A stretch of 28,024 nucleotides of DNA. It comes from a virus. A program made the position numbers and the translations under genes. Shown piece by piece: positions 316 to 6,464 of the stretch. The notes beneath the pieces were generated by a model. The model was given only the letters and a program-made list of their open reading frames with translations. It was not told where the DNA came from and did no database searches. The stretch spans positions 1 through 28,024 of the IMG/VR virus record IMGVR_UViG_3300046724_000548. The stretch is one strand, 5' to 3'. Position 1 is the stretch's first letter, and each line of letters opens with the position of its first letter.

Positions 316-504
316 ATGAGCTTCGGCAACACGTTGCTCTGGCTTGGTGGCTTCCTCGCCGAGAGCGCCGTCTTCTACTTCGGCATGCTCTCGGTCCGCC
401 GCGTCACCAGAACTCGACGGCGCAGGAGGCGGCCGCCGATTCGCATGACCGCCACGGTCGGCCGTGAGCTGCCCGCCCCGCCCCGGAAGGAGCTGTCGCG
501 TTGA
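316..504 (+). CDS. Small membrane peptide with basic tail (62 aa)
   Basis: The ATG at 316 is chosen because GGGAG (304-308) is correctly spaced and an upstream in-frame GTG at 271 would precede the predicted transcription start. Residues about 4-26 form one hydrophobic segment (NTLLWLGGFLAESAVFYFGM). An Arg-rich stretch (RRVTRTRRRRRR) follows and is likely cytoplasmic. It overlaps the next gene by four bases (TTGA at 501-504), so the two are translationally coupled. Tiny membrane proteins ahead of DUF2637 and translocase genes are common in actinobacterial mobile elements. No specific function can be assigned. Confidence 0.65.
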   Translation: MSFGNTLLWLGGFLAESAVFYFGMLSVRRVTRTRRRRRRPPIRMTATVGRELPAPPRKELSR

Positions 505-1253
505 AGAGCCTGAAGCGTGTCCGCTGGGCTGTACGCGCCACGCTGTGGCTGGGTCTAGTGGCGTCCACGGTCGGCAACATCCTGCACGCCGAACCCAACC
601 CGATCGCGCAAGCCATCGCGGCATGGCCGGTGGCGGCCCTGTACCTGACGATCGAGCTGATCTCGCGGGTGCCGATCCACCGCCGCTGGCTCGCCGGTGT
701 GCGGCTGTGCGCCGCCGGGGTGATCGCCGGGATCGCGGCTTGGGTGTCGTATCACCACATGGCGGCGGTCGCCGCGCGCTACGGGGAGACGGGCGCGAGC
801 CCGTACCTGCTGCCCCTGTCGGTGGACGGGCTGATCGTTGTCGCGTCGATCTGCCTCGTCGAGCTGGGCGGCCGGATCCGTACGGCCGAGGAACAGCCGC
901 TGGCACCGCCCGAACCGGCTGGTCCGGTGACGATCATCCGCGTGCCGTACCCCGACTACGAGCGGCCGATCGGTCCGATGCCCGCCCCGGCGCGATCTCG
1001 ATCTGGCACAGCGGGCGGCGATGATTCCGCAGCTCAGCGGCAGCGTGCAGACGAGCGGTCTGCACAGCAGAAGGAAGTCGTGGTGCGTGCAGTAAAGACG
1101 GCCGACCCCGACGCGTCGCTGCGGTGGATCTCCGCCGCGACGCTCGTGCCGGTGTCGACCGTCCGGAACATCTTGAGCGCGGCGGCGGAACAGCCGCCGG
1201 AGAAGGTCAACGGCAAGATGGCGGACCTCGAGGGAGTGGGCGCCGGTGGCTGA
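501..1253 (+). CDS. DUF2637 membrane protein (SpdB-like)
   Basis: A 250-aa protein starting at TTG 501 with a strong GGAAGGAG ribosome binding site at 485-492. Four hydrophobic segments are visible at residues about 11-29, 36-56, 66-83 and 102-121, and the last holds the family-typical PLSVDGLIVVAS. A proline-rich linker (about 130-170) leads to a C-terminal region (about 195-230, SLRWISAATLVPVSTVRNIL) resembling a helix-turn-helix. DUF2637 proteins are encoded beside the TraB/FtsK translocase in actinobacterial integrative conjugative elements, where spread (Spd) proteins help plasmid spreading within mycelium. Its role in a phage-like element is not known. It overlaps the translocase gene by 8 bp. 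Confidence 0.85.
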   Translation: MKSLKRVRWAVRATLWLGLVASTVGNILHAEPNPIAQAIAAWPVAALYLTIELISRVPIHRRWLAGVRLCAAGVIAGIAAWVSYHHMAAVAARYGETGASPYLLPLSVDGLIVVASICLVELGGRIRTAEEQPLAPPEPAGPVTIIRVPYPDYERPIGPMPAPARSRSGTAGGDDSAAQRQRADERSAQQKEVVVRAVKTADPDASLRWISAATLVPVSTVRNILSAAAEQPPEKVNGKMADLEGVGAGG

Positions 1254-3312
1254 GGTCAAGGCGTACGAGCCAGAGCCGTTCGAGCCGGACGAGCCCGCGC
1301 CGCACGACGCCGAAACCATCGACGCGACGCCCTCGCCGCTTGGTCAACCGGTCGACCAGCCCGCCAGAGGCGCAACCTTCGCCGACATCCTCGGCCGCGC
1401 CGACGAGCGCCGCCCCATCGTCCCCGCGTCATTGCGGTCCCGCGCCGGGCGGCGCTCGCTGGTCGTCCTGGCTGCCGGGTTCGTCACCCACGGCGCACTG
1501 TTCCACACCACCCACTCGCCGAAGTACGCAAGCAAGGCCGTCATCTACACGCCGCGGGGCATGTGGCGAGTCCTGGCCCGGGCGGTGTGGTGGGCCCGCG
1601 CCGAGGAAGGCAACTGGGACCTGCGCCGGCGGGCCGCCGCGTCGGGGGATGCCGAGGCATGGCTGAGGCTGAACCGGGAGCGTAAGCAGGACTCCCGGCC
1701 GCGCTGGTTTGCCCTGATCGGAGCCCTCCTGGCGCTGCTCATCGCGGTGCCGTTGTTCTACCTGCTCGCGCCGTGGTGGGCGAAGGCCGCCGCGGCCGTT
1801 TCCCTGATCATGCTGCACGCGAGGATCGGGCGACCCGTCGACAAACCGATCATCGACCGGGCGTTCAACGCCGCCCGCTACGTGCGCCTGACCGCCGAAC
1901 TCACCCGCCAGGCCCTGATCGCCTCCGGCGCCGGCATCAAGGAGCCGGCAGCGGTGAAGTTCAACCGAGAGATCTACCGCGACGGTCCGGGCTACACCGC
2001 CGAAGTGTCCCTTCCCACCGGCATCATCGCCACCGACGTCATCGACCGCCGCGACTACCTCGCCGCCGGCTTCCAGCTGCCCGTCGCGCAGGTGTGGCCG
2101 GAGCCAGTCAAGGGCGCCCACCCGGGCGTCCTCGCGGTATGGGTCGGCGACCGGCCCGTCGACCGGATGCGCGCGCCGAAGTCACCGCTGCTGACCTGCG
2201 GGAAGCTGGACTTCTTCGGGCAGCTCCCGTGGGGTCACGACGTGCGGATGCGCCCGGTTGCGTGGCGGCTCGGCGGCCGGAACAGCCTGGTCGGCGGCAT
2301 GCCGAACACCGGCAAGACGGTGTCCGCCCGCAACGTTGGACTGGGTGCCGCCTTCGACCCGCTCGTCCGGTTCGCCATCTCCGAGCTGAAGGGCTCCGGC
2401 GACTACGACCCGCTCGAGGTGCTGTGCGCGGACGGCCTGTACATCTCCGGCTCCGACGAGGGCAGCAAGGTCCGCACCCTGGAGTTGCTACGCTGGCTGG
2501 ACGACGAGTGCGACCGCCGCGGCCCACGCATCCGCAAACTCGCCGCCAAGGGCCTGAACACCGAGAACTCCCTGAACCGGGCGATCGCCGAGGCCGACGA
2601 GACGCTGTTCCCCCTGCTCGGAATCTTCGACGAGATCCAAGAGCTGATCACCGACCCGAACCTCGGCAAAGAAGCGAAAGCAGTGCTCACAAGCCTGGTG
2701 AAGAAGGGCCGGTTCGCGGGCATCCACCTGCTGCTCGGTACGCAGCGCATCGACAAGGAATCCGTGCCGCGCGGCATCTCCTCCAACATCTCCAACCGAC
2801 TCTGCCAGGGCGTCACCTCGCACGTCGAGACCGACCTGGTGCTCGGCACCGGGGCATACAAGCGAGGCGCCCGCCCGACCGCGTTCGTGCCGCCGGCCGA
2901 CGGCGACAACCCATGGGCGGGATGGGGCTACCTGGCCGGCCGGGAGCAGCCCGTCCAGGCCGACTACATCGACGTGCCGACAGCTCGCGGCGTGGTGGCC
3001 CGCGCCCTGGCGCTGCGCGGGCAGATCGCGCCGGTCGACTTGCGCCGCGACCCGGACCGCGATGTCCTCGCCGACGTGGTCAAGGTGTTCGCGCACACCG
3101 GCCGTCCGGGGCTGCACTGGCAGCGCTTGGCCGAGCTGCTCGCCGCGCAGGAGCCGCAGCTCTATGCGGGCGTCAGCGCGGAAGCGGTGAGCGCCTGGGT
3201 GCGGGCCGAGGGTGTCGACTCGGAGAACGTCACGGTCGACGGCAAGACACTGAAGGGCTGCCGCCGGGCGAAGGTTGAGCAGGCCATTCAGCAACGAGAA
3301 CTGGAGGGATGA
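1246..3312 (+). CDS. FtsK/SpoIIIE-family DNA translocase (TraB-like)
   Basis: A 688-aa protein starting at GTG 1246 inside the end of the DUF2637 gene. An acidic, Pro-rich N-terminus (1-60) is followed by hydrophobic helices at about 154-175 and 177-193. The motor domain has Walker A GMPNTGKT at 351-358 and Walker B LLGIFDE at 457-463, and a segment around 515-540 (RGISSNISNRLCQ) typical of FtsK-like ATPases. The C-terminal 75 residues look like a winged-helix DNA-recognition module. In actinobacterial conjugation one such protein moves double-stranded DNA between cells, recognising repeats at a clt site. It is smaller than chromosomal FtsK and lacks a large multi-helix N-terminus. The alternative is a phage-borne translocase with another job, such as genome segregation. 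Confidence 0.9.
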   Translation: MAEVKAYEPEPFEPDEPAPHDAETIDATPSPLGQPVDQPARGATFADILGRADERRPIVPASLRSRAGRRSLVVLAAGFVTHGALFHTTHSPKYASKAVIYTPRGMWRVLARAVWWARAEEGNWDLRRRAAASGDAEAWLRLNRERKQDSRPRWFALIGALLALLIAVPLFYLLAPWWAKAAAAVSLIMLHARIGRPVDKPIIDRAFNAARYVRLTAELTRQALIASGAGIKEPAAVKFNREIYRDGPGYTAEVSLPTGIIATDVIDRRDYLAAGFQLPVAQVWPEPVKGAHPGVLAVWVGDRPVDRMRAPKSPLLTCGKLDFFGQLPWGHDVRMRPVAWRLGGRNSLVGGMPNTGKTVSARNVGLGAAFDPLVRFAISELKGSGDYDPLEVLCADGLYISGSDEGSKVRTLELLRWLDDECDRRGPRIRKLAAKGLNTENSLNRAIAEADETLFPLLGIFDEIQELITDPNLGKEAKAVLTSLVKKGRFAGIHLLLGTQRIDKESVPRGISSNISNRLCQGVTSHVETDLVLGTGAYKRGARPTAFVPPADGDNPWAGWGYLAGREQPVQADYIDVPTARGVVARALALRGQIAPVDLRRDPDRDVLADVVKVFAHTGRPGLHWQRLAELLAAQEPQLYAGVSAEAVSAWVRAEGVDSENVTVDGKTLKGCRRAKVEQAIQQRELEG

Positions 3313-4558: not shown

Positions 4559-4594
4559 AAAGCCGCCCCCACCCGAAGGTGGAGGCGGCTTTTC
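4559..4594. terminator. Bidirectional intrinsic terminator between convergent operons
   Basis: The arms AGCCGCC-CCACC and GGTGG-GGCGGCT form a 12-bp GC-rich stem with one opposed mismatch around a CGAA loop. A TTTT follows on the plus strand, and TTTCGTCG on the minus strand. It lies between the end of the rightward operon (4544) and the end of the leftward late operon (4629), so it can stop both. Confidence 0.85.
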
Positions 4595-4628: not shown

Positions 4629-4814
4629 TCAGGCGGCGGGTGCGTTCGGCACGCGCCAGGTGGCCAGTCCTGCGGCGACGGCGGCGACGGCGAACGCGCC
4701 GATGGCCTGGCCGATGGTGTTGTCGTCCACGGACCCGGCCTTGACGAGCACGGCGATCCCTGCGGCGAGCCCGGCGGCGACTGCGGCGACGAGCGCTTTG
4801 CGTACGCGAGCCAT
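4629..4814 (-). CDS. Holin-like two-helix membrane protein (61 aa)
   Basis: The ATG at 4814 has GGGAGG directly upstream at good spacing; longer in-frame extensions lack one. A basic N-terminus (MARVRK) precedes a first hydrophobic segment at about 7-25. A polar turn (KAGSVDDNTIG) leads to a second segment at about 36-53, ending TWRVPNAPAA. The size, two-helix hairpin and VPN tail match small membrane proteins in actinophage lysis cassettes, often annotated as holins. It is the last late gene, near the endolysin, which supports a lysis role. This is assignment by pattern, not a catalytic motif. An SOS-box-like palindrome lies 12 bp upstream of the start. Confidence 0.65.
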   Translation of the reverse strand: MARVRKALVAAVAAGLAAGIAVLVKAGSVDDNTIGQAIGAFAVAAVAAGLATWRVPNAPAA

Positions 4815-4825
4815 GATGTCCTCCC

Positions 4826-4837
4826 GAACACGTGTTC
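4826..4837. promoter_or_regulatory. LexA (SOS) box-like palindrome
   Basis: CGAACACGTGTTCT contains the perfect 12-bp palindrome GAACACGTGTTC and fits the Gram-positive LexA consensus CGAAC-RNRY-GTTC. TAATGG (4838-4843) follows directly, in -10 position for the gene starting at GTG 4848. This arrangement resembles actinobacterial SOS promoters. It also lies just upstream of the ribosome binding site of the divergent holin-like gene and could affect both. Confidence 0.65.
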
Positions 4838-4847
4838 TAATGGTGGG

Positions 4848-5114
4848 GTGGAACGGATCGACCTCGCCGCCGTCCACTCGACGGTGCGGCAGTGGTGGCG
4901 CAGCGGCGACCTGTGGGACGAGAGAGCTGTGAAGGTCATCGTCGGCGAGGTGACCGACGGGCGCTGGTACGTGCGGCGCTACGCCGGCGGCCCGGAGAAG
5001 GTCCTCGCGTACGCCGGCCCGAAGGCCGAGCACTACGCCCGGGCCACGGCGAGACGCTGGATGCGGACTGTCGGCGGCGAGTGGGTCGAGGCGTCAGCTC
5101 ACCGAGGCGGCTGA
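4848..5114 (+). CDS. Trp-rich hypothetical protein behind an SOS-type promoter (88 aa)
   Basis: This plus-strand gene is surrounded by the leftward lysis cassette. GTG 4848 lies 4-5 bases after a TAATGG -10 element and has no normal ribosome binding site, so a leaderless transcript is likely. Third-position GC is very high throughout and codon use is that of a real gene. The protein is soluble, mixed charge and rich in Trp (six to seven residues) and Arg, with a C-terminal segment RWMRTVGGEWVEAS. No known family is recognised. It overlaps the end of the opposite-strand gene (5099-5407) by 16 bp. LexA control is inferred from the palindrome at 4826-4837. Confidence 0.7.
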   Translation: MERIDLAAVHSTVRQWWRSGDLWDERAVKVIVGEVTDGRWYVRRYAGGPEKVLAYAGPKAEHYARATARRWMRTVGGEWVEASAHRGG

Positions 5115-5407
5115 CATTTACTTAGCTGATAGACCTGCAGCCAAGCGCCGACCTGCGCCCGCCCGGCGGCGGTTGTCGGCGGAGATTCCTGGTACGTGTC
5201 GAGGATCGTGGTGAACAGGAAGCAGACGATGGCCCGGGCCTGCTGGGCCGCGCGCGCCTCAACGGCTGCCGCTCTGCGTGCCTGCTCCTGCTGGTTGTGC
5301 TGGATCCAGAACGAGAACAGCCCCGCCAGCACCAGGACGGCCAGGCCCCAGGACAGCAGCACGAACCACACCTTGCGTGGGATCTCCCACCGCACCGGCT
5401 CCGTCAT
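5099..5407 (-). CDS. One-helix membrane protein of the lysis cassette (102 aa)
   Basis: The ATG at 5407 follows GGAGGGTGAGGC, a strong ribosome binding site, and overlaps the stop of the upstream gene by four bases (ATGA). A short cytoplasmic end (1-11) leads into a helix at about 13-35 (VWFVLLSWGLAVLVLAGLF). An Ala/Arg/Gln-rich likely coiled coil (about 38-60) and a C-terminal domain with two cysteines follow. A single N-terminal anchor plus a coiled coil recalls spanin-like or phage lysis accessory proteins, but no family is identified. Confidence 0.75.
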   Translation of the reverse strand: MTEPVRWEIPRKVWFVLLSWGLAVLVLAGLFSFWIQHNQQEQARRAAAVEARAAQQARAIVCFLFTTILDTYQESPPTTAAGRAQVGAWLQVYQLSKCQPPR

Positions 5408-5678: not shown

Positions 5679-6464
5679 TCACGCGGTGGCTTCGACGGTG
5701 AGCTCGCCGCCGGTCACGGTCAGCGTGCCGGAGAACTCGCCGCCCGTACCCGGGTCGCCCTTCGGGCCCTGCGGACCCGCGGGGCCCTGCGGACCGGCCG
5801 GGCCGGCGGGGCCGTGCGGGCCGACCGGGCCTTGCGGGGCCCACTTCGCCGCGAGCCGGTAGTCCAACCGATACGCCGTGTCCGGCCCGTACGCCTTCCC
5901 GTCGCGGGTCAGCCCGTACGACGCCTCCAGCGCCTTCACCGCGTTTGCGGTCGCGTCGCCGTAGTCGGCGTCCGCCGTGCCCGGGCTGAAGCCCGCGCCG
6001 CCCAGCCGGTACTGCAGGTATTGCACGTTCGGCCCATGGTCACCGTAGTTGCAGAACACGTCGTCTCCCGTCAGCCCCCACGGGGCGGTCGAGTTGTTGC
6101 CGGTGTGGTCGTGGCGCGCCGAGAAGTGGGCGTGGCCGGTGTGCGGATCGGCCGTGCCCGTGTAGGTCCGCCACGTCCAGCCCTGGTCGCGGGACGCGAT
6201 CCGCCGGTTCCAGATGATGTACTCGAGCCGGTCGTCGCCGCGCTGCTCCTCGACCAGGTCGCCGAACGGGGTCGGCCACGGGCCGGTCGAGTCGATGTCG
6301 ACCGCGAGGACCCGGCCATCTGCTTGCGGGTTGTGGTCCGAGGTGTGGACCTGGTGCGCGGCATCACCAATCCAGCCGTCCGCGCCCTTGTCCCGGTTCG
6401 GCGAGAGCGTATTGAACTCGGAGCGCAGGGCGACGAGGCAGGGCACCAGATACGGGACGGCCAT
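5679..6464 (-). CDS. Endolysin: M15-like metallopeptidase, PG-binding domain, collagen-like repeats
   Basis: A 261-aa protein; ATG 6464 is preceded by AGGAGGG. The N-terminal domain (about 10-120) has the metal-site pattern of M15-type peptidoglycan peptidases: HTSDH at 40-44, AVDID at 54-58, and HTGHAH at 108-113. Residues about 138-200 look like a peptidoglycan_binding_1 domain (GPNVQYLQYRL, then YGDATANAVKALE). About nine Gly-X-Y triplets (212-239, GPVGPHGPAGPAG style) and a short beta-like tail follow. No signal peptide is seen, so export would need a holin. It lies directly before the small membrane genes of the lysis cassette. The collagen-like segment is unusual for an endolysin; a virion-attached hydrolase is an alternative. 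Confidence 0.8.
   Translation of the reverse strand: MAVPYLVPCLVALRSEFNTLSPNRDKGADGWIGDAAHQVHTSDHNPQADGRVLAVDIDSTGPWPTPFGDLVEEQRGDDRLEYIIWNRRIASRDQGWTWRTYTGTADPHTGHAHFSARHDHTGNNSTAPWGLTGDDVFCNYGDHGPNVQYLQYRLGGAGFSPGTADADYGDATANAVKALEASYGLTRDGKAYGPDTAYRLDYRLAAKWAPQGPVGPHGPAGPAGPQGPAGPQGPKGDPGTGGEFSGTLTVTGGELTVEATA

What the first reader, a model, noticed from the sequence alone, without database searches (positions are those of the whole stretch)
4826..5114. LexA-box-controlled, probably leaderless gene buried in the lysis cassette
A perfect GAACACGTGTTC palindrome is followed by a TAATGG -10 and GTG 4848, with gene-like codon use for 88 codons on the strand opposite to the lysis genes. The palindrome also lies directly upstream of the holin-like gene. 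DNA damage could thus act on the lysis locus outside the late operon. The protein family is unknown to me.
Basis: partly seen in the sequence, partly recalled or inferred. Interest (0 to 1): 0.63.

Follow-up and report, generated by a model that had tools for sequence, protein, structure and literature searches.

The report
SOS-controlled leaderless gene inside phage lysis cassette
A small protein gene of unknown function, hidden backwards among the lysis genes of a soil actinobacterial virus, sits behind a conserved DNA-damage (LexA-type) switch; the switch is kept in related viruses even when the gene next to it is replaced by an unrelated one.

Summary
GAACACGTGTTC (4826-4837) lies 22 nt before GTG 4848, which opens an 88-codon ORF antisense to the lysis genes. 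The ORF family is intact in 12 other viral contigs (51-87% identity, changes mostly at third positions). All 14 contigs with a readable start have a GAAC-N4-GTWC box 21-24 nt before it; elsewhere in 467 kb such boxes occur at chance level. Both flanks of the box have been swapped between phages: four unrelated holin-like families on one side, unrelated 61-, 98- and 103-codon ORFs on the other. The box stays, so it is selected. The same box, -10 and start layout precedes a LexA-DNA-binding-domain gene and ImmA/IrrE-like peptidase genes in other actinophages, and fits the Streptomyces LexA consensus. The -10 lies where actinobacterial leaderless genes carry it; none points at the holin. I read it as a LexA-repressed leaderless 'SOS moron' inserted between late genes of temperate phages with no detectable S24 repressor. 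The protein's job is open: antirepressor-like trigger or host-directed effector. One contig keeps the box without an ORF and one has a broken ORF, so the ORF is dispensable.

The parts
4824..4839 (.). LexA-type SOS box, 16-mer CCGAACACGTGTTCTA with palindromic core 4826-4837
   Evidence: S. venezuelae LexA consensus tCGAAC-N4-GNNCGa in PMC9380542
4836..4841 (+). probable -10 element TCTAAT at -12..-7 from the start codon, overlapping the right half-site (alternative register TAATGG 4838-4843)
   Evidence: first and last T of the hexamer in 13 of 14 loci; leaderless TANNNT at about -12 in Streptomyces, PMC3160421
4848..5114 (+). probably leaderless 88-codon ORF of a new phage-only family; protein function unknown
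   Evidence: no family at cut-off in Pfam, PHROGs, PADLOC or NCBIfam
4629..4814 (-). holin-like small membrane protein, 61 aa, last gene of the late operon; start codon 11 nt from the box, GGGAGG Shine-Dalgarno in between
   Evidence: 19-residue hydropathy maximum 2.23
5099..5407 (-). single-TM spanin-like late gene that overlaps the 3' end of the ORF
   Evidence: (PHROG Rz-like spanin, weak, E=0.005)
5679..6464 (-). endolysin-like protein (peptidoglycan-binding domain, collagen-like tail)
4559..4593 (.). inverted repeat AAAGCCGCCCCCACC-CGAA-GGTGGAGGCGGCTTTT, likely bidirectional terminator closing the late operon and the convergent + strand operon
   Evidence: read directly

Best explanation
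A self-contained, LexA-repressed transcription unit has been inserted antisense between the last two genes of the late/lysis operon in a family of temperate actinophages. Host LexA dimers cover the -10 region and keep the ORF silent in the lysogen. DNA damage makes RecA trigger LexA cleavage, a leaderless mRNA starts at or within a few nt of GTG 4848, and the 82-92 aa protein appears early in SOS, before late transcription from the other strand opposes it. Shown here by comparison: the gene, the box, their near-fixed spacing, the conservation, the insertion site and the turnover of cargo. Inferred: LexA binding, SOS induction, the leaderless start. Least certain: the protein's job. My first guess is coupling of the host SOS response to prophage induction (antirepressor-like, 186 Tum / Gifsy logic), because no S24-type repressor or M78 protease is detectable in these records and the same promoter layout precedes ImmA-like genes elsewhere; I give this about 0.3. 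A host-directed SOS effector is about as likely. The confidence below is for the regulatory and insertion part.
For: Box and ORF co-occur with near-fixed spacing. 13 exact GAAC-N4-GTTC boxes in 467 kb, 10 of them at this slot and 3 elsewhere, against 4.3 expected. Flanks swap while the box stays: unrelated holin-like families and unrelated ORFs in L219, L226, L233. Same layout before a LexA_DNA_bind protein (E 3e-22) and before M78 peptidases that lie between a repressor-like and an integrase-like gene. L128-L130 TCGAACAGTCGTACGA fits the S. venezuelae LexA ChIP-seq consensus at every fixed position. -10 at the leaderless position. Tyrosine integrase in 9 of 13 records; no S24, LexA or M78 domain found. 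No -10 towards the holin. In L178, a relative of one holin family without box and ORF, spanin stop and holin start are nearly contiguous, as expected if the unit was inserted.
Against: No binding or expression data. The window's box departs from the Streptomyces consensus at outer positions, and its -10 has C at -11. L177 keeps the box with no ORF opposite, and G006/L006 has an internally deleted, frame-shifted ORF, so the ORF is dispensable. Against the antirepressor reading: the protein is identical in G010 and G011, although their repressor-like and integrase genes fall in different clusters. AF2 models are weak and give no significant fold match. The host is unknown, so its own LexA boxes were not compared.
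Confidence: 0.62

Rival explanations
1. The protein is a host-directed SOS effector (for example a modulator of repair, division or transcription) carried as a moron, with no direct role in the lysogeny switch. It shares the regulatory part of the best explanation.
For: The identical protein is found with repressor-like/integrase modules of different clusters (G010 and G011). Cargo in the slot is non-homologous and soluble. It is dispensable (L177, G006). Weak nucleic-acid-binding-like fold hints (AP2, WGR, dsRBD).
Against: No homologue of known function. Fold matches are not significant.
Confidence: 0.35
2. The box mainly serves the holin-like gene: LexA blocks or limits holin expression until SOS, and the antisense ORF is secondary.
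For: The box lies about 9-23 nt from a holin-like start codon in ORF-family and cargo-swapped loci. L177 keeps the box without the ORF.
Against: No TANNNT on the holin strand in 14 loci. Relatives of one holin family lack the box (L178, L179, L182, L184). The -10 faces the ORF and keeps its distance to the start codon.
Confidence: 0.1
3. The palindrome binds another regulator, phage or host (for example an ArsR-type protein or the phage's own repressor), not LexA.
For: Other repressors can bind similar palindromes; PMC8151990 reports ArsR with a motif close to the mycobacterial SOS box.
Against: The same layout precedes a LexA-domain gene and ImmA-like genes. The box is mostly single-copy in the phage genomes, unlike operator clusters of phage repressors. 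Phages with different repressor-like genes share it.
Confidence: 0.12
4. Chance palindrome and a spurious antisense ORF.
For: GAAC-N4-GTTC is expected about 0.35 times in the window by chance, and long antisense ORFs are common at 70% GC.
Against: Conservation of box, spacing and protein in 12 further contigs, with third-position substitutions.
Confidence: 0.02

Closest known systems
LexA-controlled antirepressors of Gifsy-1/2/3 (GfoA, GftA, GfhA) and coliphage 186 Tum
   Same: Small phage gene under a LexA box, outside the immunity region; phages whose repressors are not cleaved (PMC3121763; 186 from general knowledge)
   Different: No sequence relation shown. Here leaderless, single gene, antisense inside the lysis cassette; identical protein with different repressor-like modules; anti-repression untested
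ImmA/IrrE-type (M78) peptidase genes of actinobacterial prophages
   Same: Same SOS box, -10 and leaderless start at the same spacing
   Different: They sit between a repressor-like gene and the integrase and are proteases; this ORF is neither
LexA regulon of Streptomyces venezuelae, including prophage and plasmid genes
   Same: Box fits tCGAAC-N4-GNNCGa in its core; SOS boxes at -14 to -23 from a start codon occur there (pvnz_37140, alkB, ruvC; PMC9380542)
   Different: No homologue of this ORF was looked up there; host and phage differ
Phage GIL01 and its LexA-controlled lytic switch (PMC4551915)
   Same: Phage uses host LexA directly
   Different: GIL01 LexA acts with gp7 on the lysogenic promoter P1, not on a stand-alone antisense gene

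Membership tests
LexA (SOS) regulon | LexA-type palindrome over the promoter, conserved under selection | tested here: met
   consensus
LexA (SOS) regulon | LexA binding and DNA-damage-dependent derepression | not testable with these tools
   needs gel shift and RNA-seq
leaderless (TA-led) actinobacterial gene | -10 hexamer TANNNT with first T about 12 nt before the start codon | tested here: inconclusive
   T at -12 and T at -7 in 13 of 14, but strict TANNNT only in the TACGAT and TAAGGT members; TCTAAT/TCTACT in the rest, window included; criterion
phage moron | extra gene with its own promoter inserted between genes that are adjacent in relatives | tested here: met
   present between spanin-like and holin-like genes; absent with contiguous neighbours in L178; box also absent in L179, L182, L184
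LexA-controlled antirepressor (Tum/Gifsy type) | LexA-controlled small gene outside the immunity region of a temperate phage | tested here: met
   by sequence only:
LexA-controlled antirepressor (Tum/Gifsy type) | phage repressor not of the self-cleaving S24 kind | tested here: met
   no Peptidase_S24 in 13 records, though several are fragments
LexA-controlled antirepressor (Tum/Gifsy type) | protein inactivates the phage's own repressor | not testable with these tools
   identical protein with two different repressor-like modules argues against, but binding is not testable
LexA-controlled antirepressor (Tum/Gifsy type) | sequence or fold homology to known antirepressors | tested here: not met

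The most novel reading that the evidence does not exclude
Actinophages keep an SOS-controlled cargo slot next to the holin gene: one LexA box with a leaderless promoter, behind which unrelated small soluble proteins are exchanged, each linking host DNA damage to the prophage decision in its own way, and which late antisense transcription later shuts off.
Probability: 0.35. Interest if true: 0.72.

Novelty: new variant of a known kind. Interest (0 to 1): 0.55.

Why it matters
How actinophages without self-cleaving repressors sense DNA damage is poorly described. A conserved LexA-leaderless module with exchangeable cargo offers a simple sequence signature (YCGAAC-N4-GTWCKA-N7-10-RTG antisense in late operons) to find SOS-wired phage genes, and a testable set of candidate induction triggers or host effectors.

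Tried and rejected
Known families for the ORF: Pfam, PHROGs, PADLOC, NCBIfam and PDB sequences gave nothing at cut-off (DUF6247 at E=0.03 is below its cut-off). Relatives in deposited phages: none. Fold: two AF2 models agree on strands followed by a C-terminal helix (pLDDT 80 and 66) but Foldseek gave no significant match; AP2/WGR/dsRBD-like hints are only leads. Box as holin promoter: no -10. First pattern scan without the start codon returned mostly chance AT-rich hits; only high-GC contigs were informative. Literature: no paper found on LexA sites with holin/lysis genes or on SOS boxes in mycobacteriophages (open-licence library only).

Full report
What is there. The window is an IMG/VR virus record with a tailed-phage late region on the minus strand running from terminase (about 26.4 kb) to the lysis genes (about 4.6 kb), followed by convergent plus-strand genes with a DUF2637 and an FtsK-like protein. 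The terminase is about 52% identical to that of Arthrobacter phages and part of the lysis region resembles Actinoplanes phage phiAsp2 DNA, so the host is an actinobacterium that I cannot name. The perfect palindrome GAACACGTGTTC is at 4826-4837 and GTG 4848 opens an 88-codon ORF that ends at 5114, overlapping the end of the spanin-like gene and lying wholly on the strand opposite to the late genes.

More than chance. The exact 12-mer is expected 0.003 times and GAAC-N4-GTTC 0.35 times in the window. The ORF has coding-like composition and a positive codon score only in its own frame. Translated searches of viral contigs found the family intact in 12 other contigs, cut off by the contig end in two more (L007, L168) and broken in one (L006). 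Third positions carry most differences. No relative was found in deposited phages or bacterial genome contigs.

Box, spacing and start. All 14 family loci with a readable start (window, 12 intact, L006) have a GAAC-N4-GTWC box 21-24 nt before the start codon: ten with GTTC, four (L128-L130, L169) with GTAC (the table leaves out L128, which repeats L130, and adds L219). In 467 kb of 14 records there are 13 exact GAAC-N4-GTTC boxes: ten in this slot, three elsewhere, with 4.3 expected by a Markov model. The hexamer at -12..-7 is TCTAAT, TCTACT, TACGAT or TAAGGT (13 of 14 with T at both ends; L169 is shifted by one), the place where Streptomyces leaderless genes carry TANNNT (PMC3160421). Only the TACGAT and TAAGGT members are strict TANNNT. 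In the GTAC members the half-site change creates a strict -10 while, in L128-L130, the 16-mer TCGAACAGTCGTACGA fits every fixed position of the S. venezuelae LexA consensus tCGAAC-N4-GNNCGa (PMC9380542). The window's own 16-mer fits the core and misses outer bases.

Why the box itself is selected. On one side the gene next to it changes between at least four unrelated holin-like families (clusters C43, C52, C129, C139). On the other side the ORF changes: L219 has a 61-codon, L226 a 103-codon and L233 a 98-codon ORF with no similarity to this one or to each other, while the neighbouring holin-like and spanin-like genes of L219 and L226 are homologous to those of this family. Box, -10 and start spacing persist (L226 and L233 were found with a pattern that demands this spacing, so their spacing is not independent evidence; L219's locus was first found through its holin). 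In L178, a relative of one holin family without box and ORF, spanin stop and holin start are nearly contiguous, so the unit looks inserted, as a moron would be. Two counter-cases matter: L177 keeps the box with no ORF, and G006 keeps the box with an internally deleted ORF.

Why LexA. A pattern scan for box, -10 and start found the same arrangement in front of a 72-aa protein that is a LexA DNA-binding domain (PF01726, E 3e-22) and in front of several M78 (ImmA/IrrE-like) peptidase genes that stand between a repressor-like gene and an integrase-like gene (those two neighbours were judged by eye). This is association, not binding. The box is mostly single-copy in the phages, unlike a phage operator array.

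Which gene it serves. No TANNNT lies on the holin strand in any of 14 loci; the holin has its own Shine-Dalgarno and closes the late operon. I therefore assign the promoter to the antisense ORF. Late transcription would run against it, so the natural time for its product is early in SOS (inference).

What the protein may do. Nine of 13 records carry a tyrosine integrase; none has a detectable S24 peptidase, LexA domain or M78 peptidase, though several records are fragments. [quoted passage not shown] Against it, the protein is identical in G010 and G011 (three synonymous changes, measured on L128 and L129), whose repressor-like and integrase genes fall in different clusters. Gifsy antirepressors can act on more than one repressor, so this does not exclude the reading. 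A host-directed effector is about as likely. The fold (strands and a C-terminal helix; pLDDT 80, pLDDT 66) has no significant match.

Verdict. New variant of a known kind: LexA-wired phage genes are known, but I found no description of a leaderless one antisense in a lysis cassette with exchangeable cargo; the literature search was limited to an open-licence library.

Noticed in passing
L195:10776, L216 (minus), L192:4563, L204, L196, L186, L210, L212, L203: M78 (ImmA/IrrE-like) peptidase genes of other actinobacterial prophages share the same SOS box, -10 and leaderless start at identical spacing.
   Followed up: partly
L209 (minus strand, box at 119 of the reverse complement): A stand-alone 72-aa LexA DNA-binding-domain protein encoded in a 74-kb viral contig, behind the same SOS-box leaderless promoter.
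   Followed up: partly
L221:9033-9250: The GTAC-type box precedes a 64-codon helix-turn-helix (excisionase-like by eye) ORF antisense between portal- and terminase-like genes, so the antisense SOS layout may not be limited to lysis cassettes.
   Followed up: no
window 501-3312: DUF2637 protein and FtsK/SpoIIIE-like translocase beside the phage late genes, reminiscent of actinobacterial integrative conjugative elements; recurs in the relatives.
   Followed up: no
window 5679-6464: Endolysin-like protein ends in a collagen-like GPxGPx tract.
   Followed up: no
L006/G006 around 28519: The ORF family member is internally deleted and frame-shifted while its SOS box is intact.
   Followed up: partly
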